Virus record (IMG/VR): IMGVR_UViG_3300048113_001094 | Coordinates: 1-35,591 of that record | Strand: one strand, 5' to 3' | Length of the DNA stretch: 35,591 nucleotides | From: a virus | In this document: in pieces, positions 13,803-23,318 of the stretch | How the letters are laid out: every line of letters begins with the position of its first letter | Position numbering within the stretch: the stretch's first letter is position 1 | Translations under genes and position numbers: made by a program | Notes under the pieces: generated by a model | The model's database searches: none | What the model saw: only the letters and a program-made list of their open reading frames with translations | What the model was told of the DNA's origin: nothing

Positions 13803-16643
13803 ATGGCATTAAGTCCTCAATTACTACAGTTCAAAAGCTCAGGCGTATATCGCTTAGAGTTTGACAAATCACAAACCGTGAACATCCCAGCTGAGACTAT
13901 TAGATTGGTTGTAGGTAGATCTAACAAAGGTCCTTACAATACTCCAGTATTAGTAGAAGATGTTGAACAATTTAAACAAGTTTTCGGTGGTATTGATAAG
14001 TCACTAGAAAAGAAAAACATGTTCTTCCACAGATCAGCTATTGAAGCTTTATCTAGAGGACCAATTTTAGCATTAAACTTAACTGCTGATGATGACGCTG
14101 ATAAAGTATCAGTATTCTCTCCAGCAACTAACTCTTCTGCGGAAGGTTTATCTGCTAACACTATTCAAGCATCTGATGTATTAGCTAAGAAATTTAGCGA
14201 TGTATTTGATATTGATAAGTTTTGGAATCCTTCTGATGAAAAGTTATTAACTGCTGTTTCAGAAGATACTAACCACGGAATCACTTTCGTAAACATTAAA
14301 CAAGATCCTATTACAATTATCGTCAGACAAGCTGCTGATACTAGAGGTTTTGAATTAACTGCAAGAGAGTGGTATGGTGAAACTAACATTCCAGAAGGAG
14401 TTGAAGCTGATGAATACGTATCAGACTACTTAGTAGATGTATTTGTATTTAAAGGTAAATTTGACGCTACTGAATTAAACAATGATCCTAACTACGGAGA
14501 CTATTTTGATCAAGATGGTTTATTAAAATCACAATTTGCTAAATTCGCTGGATTAAGAGAAGTAACTCTTTTAGCACAATATAATGGATTATCTTTAATC
14601 CCTGAATTTATTGATGCTGAAGGTAATCAAATGTACATCGAAACTCTAATTAATATGGAGGCTAGAAGAACAGGTTTATTCTGTGCTGTACAAGAAGATG
14701 CACTTCCACAAATCGATTTAATCGGTAATAACTTTGACATCTACCAAGATTATGAAGTATTATCACATAAAGTAAATCAAGAAAAAACTAGCAACAATAT
14801 AGATTTAACCCAATTCGGTGCTATAGTTTCTGTTGATGGTGCAGTATTAACTATTAAAGATGGAACAGCTACTGCAGCTGCACTTAGCCCAGAACTTACT
14901 GATGCTAAATATTTAAAAGCACTAGTTGATAAAGAATTTGTTAAAATCGATAAGATAGAAGATATAGGTGGTGATGTAGTTATTACTGCTTTAGGTAATA
15001 TCTCTAAATCTTATGAAAAATTCGAAACTGGAGTTTCTGCAACATGGCAAAACCCAGTATCTATCATAGTTGATGGTGATGGTAACTTAGTAATTTCAGC
15101 TGGACCATTTGATTATGGTGATTTACAAACAGGTGGAGACGCATTCTTACTATCTGAAAATGCAGGTGAATATGTAGCAATCAATAACATTGAAGTTGAT
15201 AACGTAACTGGTGTTGTAACTATATCTCCAGTTGGAAATATTGGATTTAGTACAGACTACGCAAATGCACAAGCAGTTGAATTAGGTGTCTACATAACTA
15301 AAATCAATACTAGTTTTGATGTTTGGACATTATCTCCAAACCATAGAGCAGAAATGTTCCCTACACTAAGTGCTGGTTGGAACTGGGATGACAATGGCGC
15401 AGGTAGCTTTACTTATTCTTACAATGGTGTTGGTGTATTAAACGCTGATATTAAAGTAGGAATGTATATACCAGGTGATGGTGGTAAACTATCTAGAGTT
15501 AAGAAAATCGTTAAAACATTTGTAGATGATGTAACTTATTATAGATTTGAAACTCACAGAGTAGTTTCTTTAAGACCAGCTTACGCACTTAAGAGATACG
15601 AAGACGCTTCTGGATTCTATAAGACATTCCCATTAGAAGGTGGAACACAAACTGCAAAAACAATTGCAGAATTACTAGCAGCAATTAAGCCAGGTACTGG
15701 TTTAGGTAACGCTTTAGTAGATAAAGACAACATTACATTTAGATATGTAGTTGATACATTTGGTTCTTTAGAGAACGGATCAATCTTAAATAAGGAAGAA
15801 TTATCATTCTTATGTAAAGAAAGACAAAATGCAGCAGCAATTCTTAACGCACCAATGGTGAAAGAACTTAAAGCAGCAACTAACCCAACGTTTAAAGACT
15901 CATTTGCTCCTTACGGATTTAATGTACGTCACGTTGCAACAGGAGGTAACTTAGATACTAATCCAACATCTCTTTACACATTACCATCGATCAACGAAGG
16001 TGCATCTTACGCATTCTACTACGGTCCTGGTCTTAATGTAATTGAGAATGGAAGAACTAAAGTAATTCCACCAGCAGCTTACGTATCAAACAACTATATT
16101 GACAAATATTTAGATGCATTACCATGGTCAATCATCGCAGGTCCAAGAAGAGGAGTTGTAGGTGGTACTGGAGTACAATCTTTAGAGTTCTCATTTGATA
16201 AGAATGATAGAGATATTCTTGAGCCATTTGGTTACAACCCAATCGTATTCGAAAGAGGCGTAGGTTTAACTATTAAAGGTAACAAGACTGCACAACAAGG
16301 AGTTCAATCAGCATTATCTTCAGCTCACGTAAGAGAAGTATTAATTTACATTGAAGACGGTCTTGCAGAAATCCTTAAGAACTACCTATTTGAATTCAAT
16401 AGCGCTCAAACTAGATTAGAGATCAAAACTCTAGCTGATAACTTTATGGAATCAGTGAAGAAAGATGGTGGTGTATACGACTATAAGAATATCATGGATG
16501 GCTCAAACAACACGTCTGAGGTTATCGATAACAACATGGGAATCTTAGATACGTTCGTAGAACCAGTTAAAGGTCTTGAAATCTTAGTATCGAGAGTAAC
16601 AGTATTAAATACAGGTGAAATCGCAACGGGTAACTTTGCATAA
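13803..16643 (+). CDS. 18: Contractile tail sheath protein, T4 gp18-like
   Basis: This 946-residue protein polymerises around the tail tube and contracts on infection. The N-terminus (SPQLLQFKSSGVYRLEFDKS, then VVGRSNKGPYNTPVLV) and the C-terminal 230 residues carry the conserved sheath core. The latter include FGYNPIVFERGVGLTIKGN, VREVLIYIEDGLAEILKNYL and a final LEILVSRVTVL strand. It is much longer than T4 gp18 (659). The excess falls in the central part (about 160-620), where beta-rich sequence with repeated Asp/Gly turns suggests added outward-facing domains. It is followed directly by the tube gene. Confidence 0.93.
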   Translation: MALSPQLLQFKSSGVYRLEFDKSQTVNIPAETIRLVVGRSNKGPYNTPVLVEDVEQFKQVFGGIDKSLEKKNMFFHRSAIEALSRGPILALNLTADDDADKVSVFSPATNSSAEGLSANTIQASDVLAKKFSDVFDIDKFWNPSDEKLLTAVSEDTNHGITFVNIKQDPITIIVRQAADTRGFELTAREWYGETNIPEGVEADEYVSDYLVDVFVFKGKFDATELNNDPNYGDYFDQDGLLKSQFAKFAGLREVTLLAQYNGLSLIPEFIDAEGNQMYIETLINMEARRTGLFCAVQEDALPQIDLIGNNFDIYQDYEVLSHKVNQEKTSNNIDLTQFGAIVSVDGAVLTIKDGTATAAALSPELTDAKYLKALVDKEFVKIDKIEDIGGDVVITALGNISKSYEKFETGVSATWQNPVSIIVDGDGNLVISAGPFDYGDLQTGGDAFLLSENAGEYVAINNIEVDNVTGVVTISPVGNIGFSTDYANAQAVELGVYITKINTSFDVWTLSPNHRAEMFPTLSAGWNWDDNGAGSFTYSYNGVGVLNADIKVGMYIPGDGGKLSRVKKIVKTFVDDVTYYRFETHRVVSLRPAYALKRYEDASGFYKTFPLEGGTQTAKTIAELLAAIKPGTGLGNALVDKDNITFRYVVDTFGSLENGSILNKEELSFLCKERQNAAAILNAPMVKELKAATNPTFKDSFAPYGFNVRHVATGGNLDTNPTSLYTLPSINEGASYAFYYGPGLNVIENGRTKVIPPAAYVSNNYIDKYLDALPWSIIAGPRRGVVGGTGVQSLEFSFDKNDRDILEPFGYNPIVFERGVGLTIKGNKTAQQGVQSALSSAHVREVLIYIEDGLAEILKNYLFEFNSAQTRLEIKTLADNFMESVKKDGGVYDYKNIMDGSNNTSEVIDNNMGILDTFVEPVKGLEILVSRVTVLNTGEIATGNFA

Positions 16644-16682: not shown

Positions 16683-17240
16683 ATGGCTTTACCACATTAT
16701 TCAGAGGACCAAACTAGCAAGAAGGGAAGAAACTTCGAGCCCGTTCAAGCTAACCTATTCGAGGTAACAATTTTACCACCGGATGGAGTTGCTGGACAAG
16801 AGTTCCTTTTACAACACGTTAATTCAATCAGTGGATTAGATACTATGGCTCCTGCAGTAGATGCAATCGGACAAAAATATAAGTTTTCCGATAGATCTTA
16901 CGCTGGTATGCCTGGTGCAACTGCAATTGATATTACAGTTAGCTTCTCGCTTAACTTAAATGATTCTAACCAAGCTTACTTGTATAAAACATTAAGACAA
17001 TGGTATAGAGCTCAATATAATCCAGAAACTGGAGAAATGGGTCTTAAAAAGAATTATGTTGGTACAATAGTTGTTGTACAATTTAACAGAGAAGGTGATA
17101 TTTACAGAAAAATTACTTTAGATGATTGTTTCATCACTTCAGGTGTAAACCTTGTTGGTGAACTTAACTACGAGTCAGCTGACGCAGTAGCATTAGAAGT
17201 AGGTTGGAAGTGTGATACTTTTTCAGAAGAGTTGAACTAA
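16683..17240 (+). CDS. 19: Tail tube protein, T4 gp19-like
   Basis: This 185-residue protein (T4 gp19 is 163) stacks in rings to form the inner tube. Typical features are EVTILPPDGV near the N-terminus, the central FSDRSYAGMPGA segment, the LYKTLRQWYRAQYNPETGEMG region of T4-type tube proteins, and the C-terminal strands ending in ALEVGWKCDTFS. It follows the sheath gene as in T4 and is closed by a strong terminator. Confidence 0.93.
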   Translation: MALPHYSEDQTSKKGRNFEPVQANLFEVTILPPDGVAGQEFLLQHVNSISGLDTMAPAVDAIGQKYKFSDRSYAGMPGATAIDITVSFSLNLNDSNQAYLYKTLRQWYRAQYNPETGEMGLKKNYVGTIVVVQFNREGDIYRKITLDDCFITSGVNLVGELNYESADAVALEVGWKCDTFSEELN

Positions 17241-17552: not shown

Positions 17553-18560
17553 ATGAGCAAAGACAAAAACAAAATGAGCGCCGAAGAAGCTAAAATGGCA
17601 AGAGCTTTAGAAGCCAAAGACGGTATTAATAGACCAACTGCCGAGTCGAATACTCCTGCAGCAAACGACATGGAAGCAGCAGTAGATTCTGCAGGTTTAG
17701 GTAGAGTTAATATGGCAAATTTTACACCAGATAAAGCACAATCTTCTGATAGTGCATTAGGATGGCATGTATTAGATCAGATTACTTTACCATCAATGGG
17801 TAAATTTTATCCTGCTGATAGCGTAATTAAAATCAGATCTGCAAGAGCAGCTGAAATTAGACACTTTTCTACAATGGATGAGAACAACTACATTGATATG
17901 GAAGAGAAGTTAAATTCAATTGTTGAATCATGTGCACAGATGACTGCTGGTAATAAAAGACTATCTTACAAAGATATTTTAGAAGAGGATAGAATTGTTC
18001 TATTACTTTCCATTAGAGATCTTACTTTTCCGGAACCAGAAAATAAGTTAATGTTATCTGGTAAAACTGAAAAGACTAAAAAGCAACAAGAGGTTGAGTT
18101 ATCAGTTAAAAACTTAGTACCATCTATTATCGATGAGGAAATAGAAAGGTATTATGATGACAAACAGAGAACGTATGTTATTAAAACTCGTTCTGCTGGT
18201 GAAATCATCATGGCACCACCAACAATTGGTGTTATGCAAGAGGTTACTCAATACTTAAAAGATCGTAATGAAAAAGAACTAGAATTTGATAAAGCATTTA
18301 TTCAAGTATTGCCTTATATCCAGAGTGACTGGAGAGTTCTAAGCCTAACAAAGATATTTCAATTAGAAGTAGATTACAAGGCATGGGATCAAAAAAAGTT
18401 TATGATTGTATATAGACTTGCTGAAAGAATGAGAATTGGTGTTCAAGCAACATTAGAAACTACCGGAGACAATGGAGAATTGGTGAAAGCCCCTCTTGAG
18501 TTCCCAGGTGGCATCAAAAGTCTTTTCATTATTTCAGATCTCGCTGGAGAATTACTTTAA
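17553..18560 (+). CDS. Baseplate hub/tail-assembly chaperone protein, T4 gp26-like
   Basis: This 335-residue protein has a disordered N-terminal third rich in Ala/Asp. A conserved core follows, starting LDQITLPSMGKFYPADSVIKI, with EIRHFSTMDENN and SYKDILEEDRIVLLLSIRDLTF. This is the pattern of the T4_baseplate (gp26) family. Later, YVIKTRSAGEIIMAPPTIGV resembles the second beta domain of the same family. The gene lies before the tape-measure-like gene, where tail assembly chaperones are found. It ends CTT TAA, and a second reading frame overlaps the end, so a +1 frameshift product of 417 residues is plausible. Confidence 0.75.
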   Translation: MSKDKNKMSAEEAKMARALEAKDGINRPTAESNTPAANDMEAAVDSAGLGRVNMANFTPDKAQSSDSALGWHVLDQITLPSMGKFYPADSVIKIRSARAAEIRHFSTMDENNYIDMEEKLNSIVESCAQMTAGNKRLSYKDILEEDRIVLLLSIRDLTFPEPENKLMLSGKTEKTKKQQEVELSVKNLVPSIIDEEIERYYDDKQRTYVIKTRSAGEIIMAPPTIGVMQEVTQYLKDRNEKELEFDKAFIQVLPYIQSDWRVLSLTKIFQLEVDYKAWDQKKFMIVYRLAERMRIGVQATLETTGDNGELVKAPLEFPGGIKSLFIISDLAGELL

Positions 18561-18807
18561 GACAAAGTTCTACCTGGGTATACATCTTAGGATGCAGCCT
18601 TCAGAGATCGAAAACATGTATTACTACGAATATTGGTATTATGTCAAGAATCTGTCGGAGTACATCAAGAATAAGAATAAGCAACAATCGGATCAACAAG
18701 AACAGGCCAACGATCAACAGAGCGCAATGAGCTCTAAGTATAAAACGCCTTCGATGCCCAAGATCCCATCTATGAAGACGCCATCGTTTAAGATGCCGAA
18801 AATGTAG
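18496..18807 (+). CDS. Overlapping +1-frame tail chaperone extension, gp51-like position
   Basis: This frame is open from 18487 to TAG 18805-18807. There is no good start in the overlap, only TTG at 18496 and then ATG at 18591, after conserved-looking sequence has begun. The part after the overlap reads FKTKFYLGIHLRMQPSEIEN, then MYYYEYWYYVKNLSEYIK. The (L)SPxEIExMPYYEYEYYV pattern is typical of short proteins that follow gp26-type genes before tape-measure genes. The tail is Lys/Pro/Ser-rich (about 75-103). I think it is made as an extension of the preceding protein by a +1 shift at CTT TAA G (18555-18561), adding 82 residues. Separate initiation remains possible. Confidence 0.7.
   Translation: MSSQVASKVFSLFQISLENYFKTKFYLGIHLRMQPSEIENMYYYEYWYYVKNLSEYIKNKNKQQSDQQEQANDQQSAMSSKYKTPSMPKIPSMKTPSFKMPKM
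18555..18561 (+). promoter_or_regulatory. Candidate programmed +1 frameshift site CTT TAA G
   Basis: The zero frame ends GGA GAA TTA CTT TAA. Slipping one base forward on CTT/TTT reads AAG and enters the downstream frame. The arrangement copies the bacterial RF2 (prfB) site CTT TGA C. GGAG lies five bases upstream of CTT, like the SD-like stimulator of prfB, though flavobacterial hosts use SD sequences weakly. Confidence 0.6.
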
Positions 18808-18879: not shown

Positions 18880-21800
18880 ATGCCTAAAAAGAATTTTTTA
18901 TCATCCGCGTTTGATAAGCTTAGTGATAAACAAGGAGGTATTCTAGAGGAAATTAGTGCAAATACACTTGTTGTCGCAGAAACCTTTGAAGAAGGTGGAG
19001 AGATATTTGATAGAATAGACAGAATGGTTGAGGCCATTGAAACTATTGTTGAAAGTACTAAAAGCGGTAGCGGTGGACTTCAAGAAGCTATTGTATTAAA
19101 TTTAGTAGCACCTACACTTAAACCTATTGGTTTAGGTATGGGCTTTATTATTGATGCGTTAAACCAGGCCGAGAGTGCTGAAGATTTAACGTCAAAATTC
19201 GGTGCACTTAATGCCGGATTAGTAGTATTAGGAGATATAGGTAAATCTATATTAATGTTTGCAGCAACGATGGTAATAGGAATACCAATCTTAATGATCG
19301 CTGCAGTTACCGCCCCAGTCTGGGTTGGTGGTATATTTGTTATTATACAGGGTATTAAAATGGCAACTCAAGGCCTAAAAGAAGGCGAGTTGGATAAATT
19401 AGTAATACTCCATGCCATTGGTATATCAATTATGAGATTTGGACTAATGATGGCAGCAATGGTATTGATAGCACCCGTTGCAATTATAGGTATGTTATTT
19501 ACAGTACCTCTGATTTTAGGTGTTGTTGCAATGGCTAAGTATATAGAAGAACATTTAGGTAAAGATGCTATAGAGAACTTTAGAAATTTTAATGAAGCGA
19601 TGGTGATGTTAGGCCTAGGTTTATTAGCTATAGGACTTTCTTTAGCATTTATGGGCGTTTTCTACACACAGGTCTTTACGGGACTTGCAGTTGCAGCAGG
19701 AATTATTTTAGGGCTAGGCTTTTTATTTATGATATGGGATAAAGGATTTGGAATATCTCAGAAAAAAGCAGAGGGTTATGCAAAGGCATTAGCATTCTTA
19801 GGTCTTGGTTTAATTGGTATTGCATTAGGCTTAATGTTAATGAACGCATTTGCTGTACCAATTATGAAAGGTTTAATGGTAGCAGCACTAGTATTAGTGG
19901 TAATAGGTGGTGTATTCTGGCTCTTCCAAAAAATGGGAATTAATAAAACCATTAAGAAAACATCAGCGGGCTTAATCTTAGCTGCAGGCGCAATCTTAGC
20001 TCTTTCTGTAGCATTAGCTATTGCTAATTTAATAATGCCTGGCTTTTTAGATACATTGGGTATATTAATGGTAATTGGAGCTGTAGGGTTAACTATGTAC
20101 ATTATAGGAAATCAAATAGCTCAAATCGTAAAAGGTGCGCTTGGATTAATTATTATGGGTCTAGGTCTATTTGCATTATCAGTTGGTATTGGATTTATGA
20201 GATTGGCACTTCCAGATCCTATAGAGGGCATGGGCATGTTATTATTCATAGGTGGTTTAGCCTTAGTATTTGGAATAGCAGGTATGGCCTTTGCTAATAT
20301 AGCTTTAGGTGGGCTTGCAATGATAATTGCAGGAGTTGCATTAATAGTCTTAGGAATTGGTGTAATAGCAATGATGTCGTCATTACCTACAGTTGAAGAG
20401 GGTATTGGTATGTTATTATTAATAGGTGGTTTAGGCCTAGTATTTGGAGTTGCTGGTGCAGCAGCTGCATTTATAGCATTAGGTGCAGCCTCTATGATGG
20501 TCGCAGGTGTGGCATTAATTATTATAGGAGCAGGTGTGGCTATATTGTCAGCGGCTACTAAAGATGTAACAATGGATCAGGTTCTTGTAATGGGAGCAAT
20601 TATAGCAGGTGTTGGAGTTGCTATGGCAGCAGCTGGTTTAGCATCACCTTTAATCTTATTAGGTTCTGTTGCAATGACAGCAGCTGGAGTTGCAGTATTA
20701 GCAATCTCTGCTGGAATCGGAGCTCTAGCATTACTTAACTTTGCTAAATTAGGTACTATTTCTGAAAAAGGTAATAAGGCATTTAACTGGTCTGGTGAAA
20801 AAGGATTCTTCGGTGGTAAGAAAACTAACTTTGAAACAGCAATGGATGCCATCGCAGATGGTATGTCATTAGGACCATTGGCAATTCTAGGTATTATGGC
20901 AGGTGCGCCAACCTTGATTTTAGCAGGAGCTGCATTAACAGGTATTGCATTAGGACTTAGAGTATTTACAGCAGTTATAGGAGATGTTGATTTACCTAAA
21001 CTAAGTGATAATGTAAAAATGATCGTGGCAGGTCTAGCAGATACATTTGCCGATGTTGGTAGAAAATACCCAGGAGGTGGCGGTGGAATTCTAGCTGCTT
21101 TAACTGGAAGTGGTGGTGATAAATCAGTCGTAGCACAAGGTATTTCTGCAGTTGGTGGAATGGGTAAAGCACTTACTGGTATTGCAAAGGGTGTTCAAGC
21201 CATGGCAATGCTTAAATTCCCAACAGGATTTGATAAAGACGGTAATCCAACAGGATTTGAAACTATAGATCTAACAAGCGCAGTACCAAACTTAATTGCC
21301 AATACTAAATTAATAGTAACAGGTTTAAGTTCTGCATTTGCAGAAGTTGGAGAATCTAGTGCTGCTCAAGGTAGTTCATGGTTTAGTTCTTCTGCTTATG
21401 AAAAAGGTATTGATGTTGTTAGACAGATGGGTACTCCGCTATTTAATTTAGCAAAAGGTGTACAGTCTATGGCAATGCTTAAATTCCCAACTGGATTTGA
21501 TAAGGACGGTAACGCAACAGGATATAAATCAATTGGAGACGTAGATACTTTAGTTGCTAAACTTGCTAAGAATACAAAAGCACTTATTATAGGTTTAGCT
21601 GGAGTATTTGAAGAAGTTGGAGCATCTGGTGTCGGCAGCGGAGGAGGATGGTTCTCTTCATCTAATTTTGAAAAGGGTGCTGAAATAGCATTACAACTAG
21701 CAGATCCTTATTCTTCATTAGCAGATGCAGTAGAATCTGTAGCTAAACTTACAGAAGGTATCACAGACCCTGTATTACTTAGAGAGAAAGTTACGTCTTT

Positions 21801-22947
21801 AGTAGAAACTATTACAGTAATAGGTGGTTTCTGGACAGAATCATTTTTTAATGGTGTTAATGCTGCACGTAATGTTAAAGAACCTTATAGTATTTTAGCA
21901 GCAACAACTACAGATGTTACTACAATTACAAGTGCAATTTCAGACGGAGCAGAAGTTAGAGAAAAGGTATCAGCTATGATAGAGTCTATTGTTGGAACTA
22001 ATGATGATGGCATAGATATGGGTGCTAAAACTAAATTAATCCATGCAATTGGATGGACTTATGGAAAATTAGGAGTTGCAATACCTTTAATAGTTACTGC
22101 AATTACTCAATTCACTGTTGAAAAAGGTAAAGCGTTTGCATCAATTTTTGGTGGTGAGACTCCAGCCGAAATGTATGAAGCAAAGAATAAAATGCTTAGA
22201 ACATTAGCAATGTCTTATATGAGAATGGCGGTTGCTATTCCAATGATTGTAGCATCAGTTAATACTGTATCTGCAGAACCAATGAATGAGTTTACTAAAC
22301 TCTATGGTGGTGTAACTAACGATGTTGAAATTTTAGCAGCTAAAAGTACTTTATTTGAAGCAGTCGGTACATCTTATCAGAAAATAGGTAGTGCAGCCCC
22401 TCAAATTGCTAGTGCTGTAAATGGTACTAGTCTAGAACAAATGCAAGGATGGACTGGCATGTTTATCGGTGATGTTGGATTCTTAAGACCTATTGCAGGT
22501 TACAACGCACAAACAGAACTTTGGAGTACAATCGGAAACTCTCTTACAATGGGAGCCACTGCATTCCCTCAGATCTCAGCCGGTATAAACGCAGTAGACT
22601 ATAATAAATTAGTAGAGTCTAGAAGAATGTTTGAAGCATTAGGAGTTCTTGCTGAAGGCGGCGAACCTGCAGATATACTTGCAGCGATGGGAGAGTCTTT
22701 AGAAATTGCAATGCAACGTTTAGCAGATATTCTAATGGAATTCCAGGACTCAGTCGGAGATGCTCAAGCAGGTCAAGAAGGTCTGTTAGAGAAAATGATG
22801 AGCATACCAGGTCAATTAGTTGGAGGTGTAGTTGATGGATTTACTGGCGGCGGTGGCAGCAACTCAGATGATATTAATAGATTAATTAGAGTTTTAACTT
22901 CGAAAGGTGTTAAAATTAATAACTTACCAGATGAATTCACACGCTAG
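18880..22947 (+). CDS. Tape-measure-like tail protein with many hydrophobic segments
   Basis: This is the longest gene in the window (1355 residues). After a polar helical N-terminus (1-70), residues about 95-690 contain a long series of Gly/Ala/Ile-rich hydrophobic segments of membrane-segment character. Tape measure proteins, which fill the tail tube and enter the host membrane, often look like this. Residues about 690-1000 contain an imperfect duplication with MAMLKFPTGFDKDGN at bases 21202 and 21469, 89 residues apart. The C-terminal quarter is soluble and helical, ending in a Gly-rich linker and DDINRLIRVLTSKGVKI. Its position after the gp26-like chaperone supports the role; T4 gp29 is much shorter (590). 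A membrane complex is an alternative. Confidence 0.8.
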   Translation: MPKKNFLSSAFDKLSDKQGGILEEISANTLVVAETFEEGGEIFDRIDRMVEAIETIVESTKSGSGGLQEAIVLNLVAPTLKPIGLGMGFIIDALNQAESAEDLTSKFGALNAGLVVLGDIGKSILMFAATMVIGIPILMIAAVTAPVWVGGIFVIIQGIKMATQGLKEGELDKLVILHAIGISIMRFGLMMAAMVLIAPVAIIGMLFTVPLILGVVAMAKYIEEHLGKDAIENFRNFNEAMVMLGLGLLAIGLSLAFMGVFYTQVFTGLAVAAGIILGLGFLFMIWDKGFGISQKKAEGYAKALAFLGLGLIGIALGLMLMNAFAVPIMKGLMVAALVLVVIGGVFWLFQKMGINKTIKKTSAGLILAAGAILALSVALAIANLIMPGFLDTLGILMVIGAVGLTMYIIGNQIAQIVKGALGLIIMGLGLFALSVGIGFMRLALPDPIEGMGMLLFIGGLALVFGIAGMAFANIALGGLAMIIAGVALIVLGIGVIAMMSSLPTVEEGIGMLLLIGGLGLVFGVAGAAAAFIALGAASMMVAGVALIIIGAGVAILSAATKDVTMDQVLVMGAIIAGVGVAMAAAGLASPLILLGSVAMTAAGVAVLAISAGIGALALLNFAKLGTISEKGNKAFNWSGEKGFFGGKKTNFETAMDAIADGMSLGPLAILGIMAGAPTLILAGAALTGIALGLRVFTAVIGDVDLPKLSDNVKMIVAGLADTFADVGRKYPGGGGGILAALTGSGGDKSVVAQGISAVGGMGKALTGIAKGVQAMAMLKFPTGFDKDGNPTGFETIDLTSAVPNLIANTKLIVTGLSSAFAEVGESSAAQGSSWFSSSAYEKGIDVVRQMGTPLFNLAKGVQSMAMLKFPTGFDKDGNATGYKSIGDVDTLVAKLAKNTKALIIGLAGVFEEVGASGVGSGGGWFSSSNFEKGAEIALQLADPYSSLADAVESVAKLTEGITDPVLLREKVTSLVETITVIGGFWTESFFNGVNAARNVKEPYSILAATTTDVTTITSAISDGAEVREKVSAMIESIVGTNDDGIDMGAKTKLIHAIGWTYGKLGVAIPLIVTAITQFTVEKGKAFASIFGGETPAEMYEAKNKMLRTLAMSYMRMAVAIPMIVASVNTVSAEPMNEFTKLYGGVTNDVEILAAKSTLFEAVGTSYQKIGSAAPQIASAVNGTSLEQMQGWTGMFIGDVGFLRPIAGYNAQTELWSTIGNSLTMGATAFPQISAGINAVDYNKLVESRRMFEALGVLAEGGEPADILAAMGESLEIAMQRLADILMEFQDSVGDAQAGQEGLLEKMMSIPGQLVGGVVDGFTGGGGSNSDDINRLIRVLTSKGVKINNLPDEFTR

Positions 22948-22997: not shown

Positions 22998-23318
22998 ATG
23001 ATAACCAGTACAACATCACATTACACGAGTTCAACTATTAATTCAGCAACTTACAATTTTACAGATAAGACATTGACTGTTGTTTTTAAATGGGCAACTT
23101 ATGTCTATGAAGCAGTAGATCTAGATACATGGAATAAATTTAACTCAGCAGATTCTCAAGGCAAAGCACTTAACGATTATATTAAGGGTGAATTTGAATA
23201 CGCTAAGTATGAAGAAAGGGTTATTAAAGCTGAACTTAGCGGGTTAGTTAAAAACATTACAGCTCCTGGTAGTCTATTAAATGAACTACCTCCCTCAGAC
23301 TATCAAATGGGCAATTAA
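22998..23318 (+). CDS. KTSC-domain protein
   Basis: This 106-residue protein has a KTSC-type domain at about residues 6-68: the opening SSTINSATYNFTDKTLTVVF, then YVYEAVDLDTWNKF and SQGKALNDYI. This matches the family pattern of S-S-x-I-x-x-x-x-Y, then L-x-V-x-F, Y-x-Y-x-x-V and an S-x-G-x-x-x-N-x-x-I end. Proteins of this family are small and often phage or plasmid encoded; I know of no firm function. It is co-directional with the tail genes, 50 bp after the tape-measure-like gene. Confidence 0.75.
   Translation: MITSTTSHYTSSTINSATYNFTDKTLTVVFKWATYVYEAVDLDTWNKFNSADSQGKALNDYIKGEFEYAKYEERVIKAELSGLVKNITAPGSLLNELPPSDYQMGN

What the first reader, a model, noticed from the sequence alone, without database searches (positions are those of the whole stretch)
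18487..18807. RF2-like +1 programmed frameshift in the tail chaperone genes
The gp26-like gene ends CTT TAA G, and a +1 frame carrying a conserved-looking PSEIEN/YYYEYWYY domain is open through it without a good start. The site mimics prfB CTT TGA C, and GGAG lies upstream. Tail chaperone pairs made by frameshift are well known in other phages, mostly -1. A +1 stop-codon slip in a T4-like phage would be new to me.
Basis: partly seen in the sequence, partly recalled or inferred. Interest (0 to 1): 0.82.

Follow-up and report, generated by a model that had tools for sequence, protein, structure and literature searches.

The report
Frameshifted tail-chaperone gene in giant phages
In a large virus that probably infects Bacteroidota bacteria, two overlapping tail-assembly genes look as if the ribosome joins them by changing reading frame partway through, not at the stop codon as first thought, and comparison with relatives suggests that the famous phage T4 replaced the same trick with two separate genes.

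Summary
A gp26-like gene (17553-18560) ends CTT TAA, and the +1 frame stays open for 82 codons beyond it. All 78 IMG/VR relatives that reach the site keep CTT TAA, and the extension resembles T4-family gp51. The pair sits just before a tape-measure-like gene and looks like a tail-assembly-chaperone (G/GT) pair joined by frameshifting.

The proposed site at the stop codon is not supported. An HMM from cyanophage gp51 gives 33.3 bits with +1-frame residues upstream of TAA, 20.0 for a stop-codon slip and 18.5 without them. A predicted helix spans the TAA. The GGAG element is not conserved. Synonymous codons are frozen over exactly the last 23 codons (entropy 0.034 against 0.594 elsewhere), starting at GCC CCT CTT (18489-18497).

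That sequence is a perfect tandem -2 slip site (CCU to CCC, CUU to CUC), giving the same frame as +1, with a hairpin 5 nt downstream. It is my best candidate (about 0.45).

Comparison: 80 of 80 cyanophage-type loci carry T TTT TTC at the gp26/gp51 junction (-1 frame). A sister huge-phage clade has invariant UUU_CCC. T4 gp51 is a gp26 paralogue with the same extension fused in frame. New variant of a known kind; nothing is shown by experiment.

The parts
17553..18560 (+). gp26-like gene (short form, 335 aa, 37.9 kDa); the 'G' partner
   Evidence: ORF. phrog_36717 1e-26 and phrog_150 'baseplate hub' 0.0062. Relative PAU gp93 hits PF12322 T4_baseplate 3.4e-8. Fold matches T4-type gp26 / baseplate hub proteins in BFVD.
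18489..18497 (+). GCC CCT CTT: candidate tandem -2 slip site (CCU->CCC, CUU->CUC); first codons of the frozen block
   Evidence: 79/79 loci. Zero synonymous variation in 38 non-redundant genes. Tandem -2 sites occur at 0.2% of codon pairs in the window's genes. CCCCTCTT is unique in the window.
18489..18557 (+). overlap read in two frames: last 23 codons of gp26, also read in the +1 (=-2) frame
   Evidence: Normalised codon entropy 0.034 against 0.594 elsewhere. The +1 frame is stop-free over -57..0 in all 18 loci tested, against 4-88% expected per locus from synonymous randomisation.
18496..18807 (+). gp51-like T extension in the +1 (=-2) frame; core domain from about 18526; the predicted -2 product is gp26 residues 1-315 plus 103 aa (418 aa, 48.1 kDa)
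   Evidence: phrog_634 'baseplate hub assembly catalyst' 7.9e-8. HMM from cyanophage gp51 33.3 bits. A helix spans the TAA position. Product computed.
18503..18511 (+). 5' arm CCCAGGTGG of a predicted hairpin, 5 nt after the slip site
   Evidence: Pairs with 18570-18578. Synonymous-null P=0.09. No covariation because the arms hardly vary.
18570..18578 (+). 3' arm CTACCTGGG of the predicted hairpin
   Evidence: CTG is 43/43; TAC/TAT keeps G-C or G-U pairing.
18555..18560 (+).
   Evidence: Conserved, but homology of the extension starts upstream of it.
18880..22947 (+). tape-measure-like gene directly downstream (1355 aa, hydrophobic repeats)
   Evidence: ORF. Its only match in the phage records is LR756500. 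The role is inferred from position and size.
16683..17240 (+). tail tube gene upstream
   Evidence: phrog_45 'tail tube' 1.7e-7 and phrog_4542 9.2e-7.
13803..16643 (+). tail sheath gene upstream
   Evidence: phrog_34521 8e-118; PF17482 5e-7.

Best explanation
This is a tail-assembly-chaperone (G/GT-type) gene pair of a T4-related jumbo phage, probably of a Bacteroidota host. Most ribosomes end at TAA 18558 and make the 335-aa gp26-like protein (G). A fraction changes frame inside the gene and makes a longer protein carrying the gp51-like T domain (GT). By analogy with lambda, G coats the tape measure and T recruits tube subunits. The frame change happens upstream of the stop, in a ~60-nt stretch that is read in both frames. 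The best candidate (about 0.45) is a tandem -2 slip at GCC_CCU_CUU (18489-18497), the same frame as +1, helped by a hairpin starting 5 nt downstream. Shown by computation: homology, synteny, the frame relation, conservation and the frozen overlap. Inferred: that the fusion is made, its ratio, its role, the exact slip codon and the hairpin's function.
For: Synteny is sheath - tube - [ORF] - gp26-like - T domain - tape measure. The +1 ORF hits phrog_634, the gp51 family. Homologous arrangements: 80/80 cyanophage-type loci have T TTT TTC two codons before the gp26 stop, with gp51 in the -1 frame. T4 gp51 matches phrog_150 over its length and phrog_634 at its C-terminus. T4 gp26 and gp51 are both PF12322, with the gp51 C-terminus beyond the profile. 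Shift upstream of TAA: cyanophage-T HMM bits for full / stop-slip / post-TAA are window 33.3/20.0/18.5, L119 20.5/9.4/9.4, L205 19.4/9.7/9.6, L120 14.7/5.1/5.7. A synonymous-randomisation test of the +1 upstream peptide gives P=0.001 for the window, 0.014 L123, 0.02 L120, 0.01 L089. The AF2 helix of residues 16-30 (pLDDT about 84) spans the TAA. Site: the frozen block starts at GCC CCT CTT, present in 79/79 loci.
Against: No protein data were found for any of these phages. The exact slip site is uncertain. The -2 site is confined to the window clade. The hairpin has no covariation and only P=0.09. LR756500 has another tandem -2 site (TCT CTT TTC), and the L083 clade has UUU_CCC, a +1 type site. 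For the L083 clade the HMM does not favour upstream entry (L083 10.1 bits for stop-slip against 3.9; L219 9.1 against 8.4), and a conserved +1-frame ATG could start T there. Other candidates inside the window overlap are AAA_A (lost in one sequence) and CTT_T at 18522. Conserved TTG 18496 and GTG 18508 leave internal initiation possible. LR756500 alone gives P=0.08 in the randomisation test.
Confidence: 0.72

Rival explanations
1. RF2-like +1 slip at CTT TAA: peptidyl-tRNA-Leu re-pairs from CUU to UUU at the stop, and translation goes on with AAG ACA AAG.
For: CTT TAA is invariant in the window clade and in the LR756500/L120 relatives. CUU before a stop is the classic prfB shifty codon (PMC10885494). 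Bacteroidia use prfB frameshifting (PMC8710568).
Against: The T domain loses its first helix and 13 HMM bits. It does not explain the frozen codons from -69 to -4. GGAG is not conserved. The stop is UAA, read by both release factors. More distant relatives end in GAA TAA, TTA TAA, AAG TAA and so on, while keeping the +1 frame.
Confidence: 0.08
2. +1 slip inside the overlap at another codon: CTT_TTC (18522), AAA_AGT (18516), or a site homologous to the UUU_C of sister clades.
For: CTT_TTC is 43/43 and lies at the place homologous to the cyanophage SFF slip. The L083 clade has UUU_CCC 32/32, with 32 of the 35 CCC codons in those genes at this site.
Against: It does not explain why the frozen block starts at GCC CCT CTT. 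At the homologous Phe the window clade has TTC, not TTT. AAA_A is broken in L048. L120 has TTA TTC instead of CTT TTC.
Confidence: 0.27
3. The T domain is a separate protein started inside gp26 (TTG 18496 or GTG 18508) or restarted at ATG 18592 after the stop.
For: TTG and GTG are conserved in 43/43. Dual coding from 18496 would also explain the frozen block.
Against: LR756500 has no ATG/GTG/TTG in the +1 frame before the domain. GCCCCTC before TTG is neither SD nor A-rich. T4 carries the two parts fused in one protein. ATG 18592 cuts off KTKFYLGIHLR, which is conserved.
Confidence: 0.12

Closest known systems
Lambda-type G/GT tail-assembly-chaperone frameshift (Xu et al. 2004; Atkins et al. 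2016, PMC5009743)
   Same: Two overlapping ORFs between tube and tape measure; the second has no start of its own and would be made as a C-terminal extension of the first.
   Different: The frame is +1/-2, not the usual -1; the G partner is the T4 gp26 family; the overlap is frozen in both frames.
T4 gp26 and gp51 (hub assembly chaperones)
   Same: Same gp26 family and a gp51-like C-terminal domain.
   Different: In T4 they are two genes on opposite strands, and gp51 carries its own gp26-like part fused in frame; no frameshift is needed.
Cyanophage / pelagiphage gp26-gp51
   Same: Short gp51 directly after gp26 and before the next tail gene; T-domain homology without gaps over 15 residues (SLFQISLENYFKTKF / SMFYNNLENYYRTNF).
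   Different: They are in the -1 frame with an invariant T TTT TTC (80/80 loci); the records annotate separate genes.
Phage Mu tail chaperone, -2 frameshift (Xu et al. 2004, cited in PMC2628397)
   Same: A -2 shift in a tail chaperone gene.
   Different: Relation of proteins and slip sequence not compared here; the PMC text gives only the direction.
Archaeal myovirus HSTV-2 (very likely +1, PMC5009743)
   Same: Chaperone pair in the +1 frame.
   Different: No sequence relation was tested here.
prfB (RF2) +1 frameshift
   Same: CUU followed by a stop codon, GGAG upstream.
   Different: UAA not UGA, GGAG not conserved, and the downstream domain starts before the stop.

Membership tests
G/GT tail-assembly-chaperone pair | Located between tail tube and tape measure genes | tested here: met
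   Tube at 16683-17240; tape-measure-like ORF at 18880. The tape measure is assigned by position and size only.
G/GT tail-assembly-chaperone pair | Second ORF overlaps the first in another frame and lacks a conserved start codon | tested here: met
   TTG/GTG are conserved in the window clade but absent in LR756500.
G/GT tail-assembly-chaperone pair | Conserved slippery sequence in the overlap | tested here: inconclusive
   GCC CCT CTT 79/79 in the window clade and UUU_CCC 32/32 in the L083 clade, but no single site across clades.
G/GT tail-assembly-chaperone pair | Both products are made, the fusion in a minority | not testable with these tools
   Needs protein data.
T4 gp26 family (PF12322 / phrog_150) | Sequence or fold homology | tested here: met
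   phrog_150 E=0.0062. Its homologue in PAU hits PF12322 3.4e-8. BFVD hits to T4-type gp26 1.8e-4 and T4-like hub assembly protein 2.1e-7. The window protein itself has no Pfam hit.
gp51 T domain (phrog_634) | Profile match | tested here: met
   7.9e-8, starting 12 residues upstream of the TAA. HMM from cyanophages 33.3 bits.
RF2-type +1 stop-codon slip | CUU directly before a stop codon | tested here: met
   CTT TAA.
RF2-type +1 stop-codon slip | SD-like element a few nt upstream, conserved | tested here: not met
   GGA->GCA in 5 of 43 distinct sequences; GACGAA in LR756500.
RF2-type +1 stop-codon slip | Downstream domain begins at the stop codon | tested here: not met
   The domain begins about 30 nt upstream in the +1 frame.
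RNA-stimulated -2 frameshift | Tandem re-pairing site plus downstream structure at 5-9 nt | tested here: inconclusive
   Perfect tandem site and a 9-bp stem after 5 nt; stem P=0.09, no covariation.

The most novel reading that the evidence does not exclude
The whole T4 superfamily makes its tail chaperones as a G/GT pair, with the frame change re-invented per lineage: -1 at T TTT TTC in cyanophages, -2 at GCC_CCU_CUU in this marine Bacteroidota-phage clade, +1 at UUU_CCC in a huge-phage clade, and a gene duplication with in-frame fusion in T4. T4 gp51 would then be the GT analogue and gp26 the G analogue, and the statement that T4 is the exception would be explained.
Probability: 0.5. Interest if true: 0.78.

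Novelty: new variant of a known kind. Interest (0 to 1): 0.62.

Why it matters
[quoted passage not shown] The comparison made here turns both into one testable statement: gp26 and gp51 are G and GT. It also gives a natural series in which the same protein junction is reached by -1, -2 (or +1) and +1 recoding, or by gene duplication, with hundreds of sequences to read the signals from. Annotators of jumbo phages and cyanophages could mark the missing fusion product.

Tried and rejected
- Slip at CTT TAA: rejected as the main site (homology, frozen codons, split helix).
- SD-like GGAG as stimulator: not conserved.
- Independent start: no start codon in LR756500; not excluded for the L083 clade, which has a conserved ATG at -26.
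- RNA structure as the sole cause of the frozen block: the stem is modest (P=0.09) and does not vary, so covariation cannot be tested. My first structure string was off by one column; the slid version paired 98.6%.
- Searches that gave little or nothing: Pfam on the window protein; relatives of Chryseobacterium phage MA9V-2 and of PAU in IMG/VR; genome contigs; A1 as a query; the PDB fold search; a literature search for a known gp26/gp51 frameshift found none in the open-access set.
- Substitution-type test inside the window overlap: too few variable sites to decide.

Full report
Position convention: 0 is the T of TAA (18558) in the window, and the first base of the homologous gp26 stop codon elsewhere.

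Observation. The ORF 17553-18560 ends CTT TAA, and the +1 frame is open through it to 18807. The sequence is as described. Among 80 IMG/VR relatives, all 78 that reach past the stop keep CTT TAA GAC[A/T]AAG and an open +1 frame that begins KTKFYLG and, where the contig reaches far enough, goes on with [I/V]HLRMQPSE. After the stop, changes are mostly synonymous in the +1 frame (20 of 30, against 22% expected by chance), so that frame is translated.

What the genes are. The upstream genes are a sheath and a tube, and a long hydrophobic tape-measure-like ORF follows. The short-form protein belongs to the T4 gp26 family. It has a weak phrog_150 hit, its homologue in phage PAU hits PF12322 at 3.4e-8, and its predicted fold matches T4-type hub proteins. 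The +1 ORF hits phrog_634, the gp51 family, at 7.9e-8.

How relatives solve the same problem. In syn9, P-SSM2 and S-PM2 the short gp51 lies just after gp26 in the -1 frame. In 80 of 80 related IMG/VR loci a T TTT TTC heptamer sits in the right phase two codons before the gp26 stop. That motif occurs 112 times in 282 kb of these loci, 80 of them at this site. T4 gp51 matches phrog_150 over its length and phrog_634 at its end. T4 gp26 and gp51 are both PF12322, with about 48 extra residues on gp51. They lie on opposite strands. So T4 has the fused form as one gene and the short form as another. This reading is mine; I found no paper that states it.

Where the frame changes. The T domains align without gaps: window +1 SLFQISLENYFKTKF with cyanophage SMFYNNLENYYRTNF. 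In the window, SLFQISLENYF lies upstream of the TAA. An HMM made only from cyanophage -1-frame T domains scores the window +1 frame at 33.3 bits with the upstream residues, 20.0 for a stop-codon slip and 18.5 for the part after the stop. The LR756500/L120 relatives behave the same way. Randomising the 0-frame codons synonymously gives such a +1 peptide with P=0.001 for the window, 0.01 for L089, 0.014 for L123, 0.02 for L120 and 0.08 for LR756500. The +1 frame is stop-free over -57..0 in all 18 loci tested. The predicted helix LENYFKTKFYLGIHL crosses the TAA position. In 21 sequences of three clades the residues S, L, F and L upstream of the TAA are invariant. A slip at CTT TAA would therefore cut the domain.

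The frozen block. In 38 non-redundant genes of the window clade, conserved amino acids use mixed codons everywhere (normalised entropy 0.594; lowest other window 0.494), but hardly at all in the last 23 codons (0.034). The change is abrupt at GCC CCT CTT, -69 to -61, which is identical in 79 of 79 loci. CCU and CUU can both re-pair perfectly two bases back, on CCC and CUC. Such tandem -2 sites are found at 0.2% of codon pairs in the window's genes. The next codon is TTG 18496, giving gp26 1-315 plus 103 aa, 418 aa in all. Five bases further on starts CCCAGGUGG, which can pair with CUACCUGGG at +12..+20. The stem is only suggestive: P=0.09 and no covariation. In the sister clade of LR756502 (32 distinct genes) the frozen block starts instead at TTT CCC (entropy 0.069 against 0.658). 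There, 32 of 35 CCC codons of the gene set fall on this one site. UUU can slip +1 to UUC. I take the start of the frozen block as the best marker of the slip site in each clade, hence -2 in the window clade and +1 in the other. This is inference.

Rivals and doubts. A +1 slip at CTT_TTC or AAA_A inside the overlap, or internal initiation at TTG 18496, cannot be excluded. For the LR756502 clade the HMM does not favour upstream entry, and a conserved ATG at -26 could start a separate T protein there. No protein has been observed. The host is inferred from relatives infecting Flavobacteriia and Prevotella. The window is a fragment of a virus record.

Known versus new. Tail-chaperone frameshifting is a textbook theme: -1 in most phages, -2 in Mu (cited in PMC2628397), very likely +1 in HSTV-2, with T4 named as the exception (PMC5009743). 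What is new here is a +1/-2 case in the T4 gp26/gp51 family with a strongly frozen dual-frame overlap, and the comparison that explains the T4 exception. The RF2-like stop-codon mechanism itself is not supported.

Noticed in passing
18559-18807: The T extension has GC3 of 0.59 against 0.18-0.30 in neighbouring genes. The same holds across the clade (0.51 against 0.25 in gp26), but much less in sister clades (0.31-0.34). Unexplained; a further RNA constraint or an unusual origin is possible.
   Followed up: partly
L083 and L210-L273, -87 to -79 relative to the gp26 stop: GAG GAG GTC (AGGAGGT, a perfect SD-like sequence) is nearly invariant in the LR756502 clade, 17 nt upstream of UUU_CCC, although GAA is otherwise preferred at a nearby conserved Glu.
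   Followed up: no
L124-L203; NC_006820, NC_006883, NC_008296: Cyanophage gp51 is annotated as a separate short gene, but 80/80 loci carry T TTT TTC in -1 phase at the end of gp26. A gp26-gp51 fusion is probably missing from the annotations.
   Followed up: yes
L094, T4 genes 26 and 51: gp51 is a full-length paralogue of gp26 with a C-terminal T-like extension; the two genes lie on opposite strands.
   Followed up: partly
L085, L086 (Lak megaphages): gp26-like gene ends TTT TAA T. In L085 the +1 frame meets a TAG, which Lak phages are thought to read as Gln (from memory), so the frame may run on.
   Followed up: no
L084 (phage PAU) after the gp26 stop: TAA GGAGCGT ATG ATG in the +1 frame looks like an ordinary SD plus start, so PAU may have moved towards separate initiation.
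   Followed up: no
22998-23318: Small KTSC-domain protein (PF13619, 1.3e-12) just after the tape-measure-like gene.
   Followed up: no
13803-16643: Tail sheath of 946 aa, longer than the 496-position general sheath profile phrog_23.
   Followed up: no
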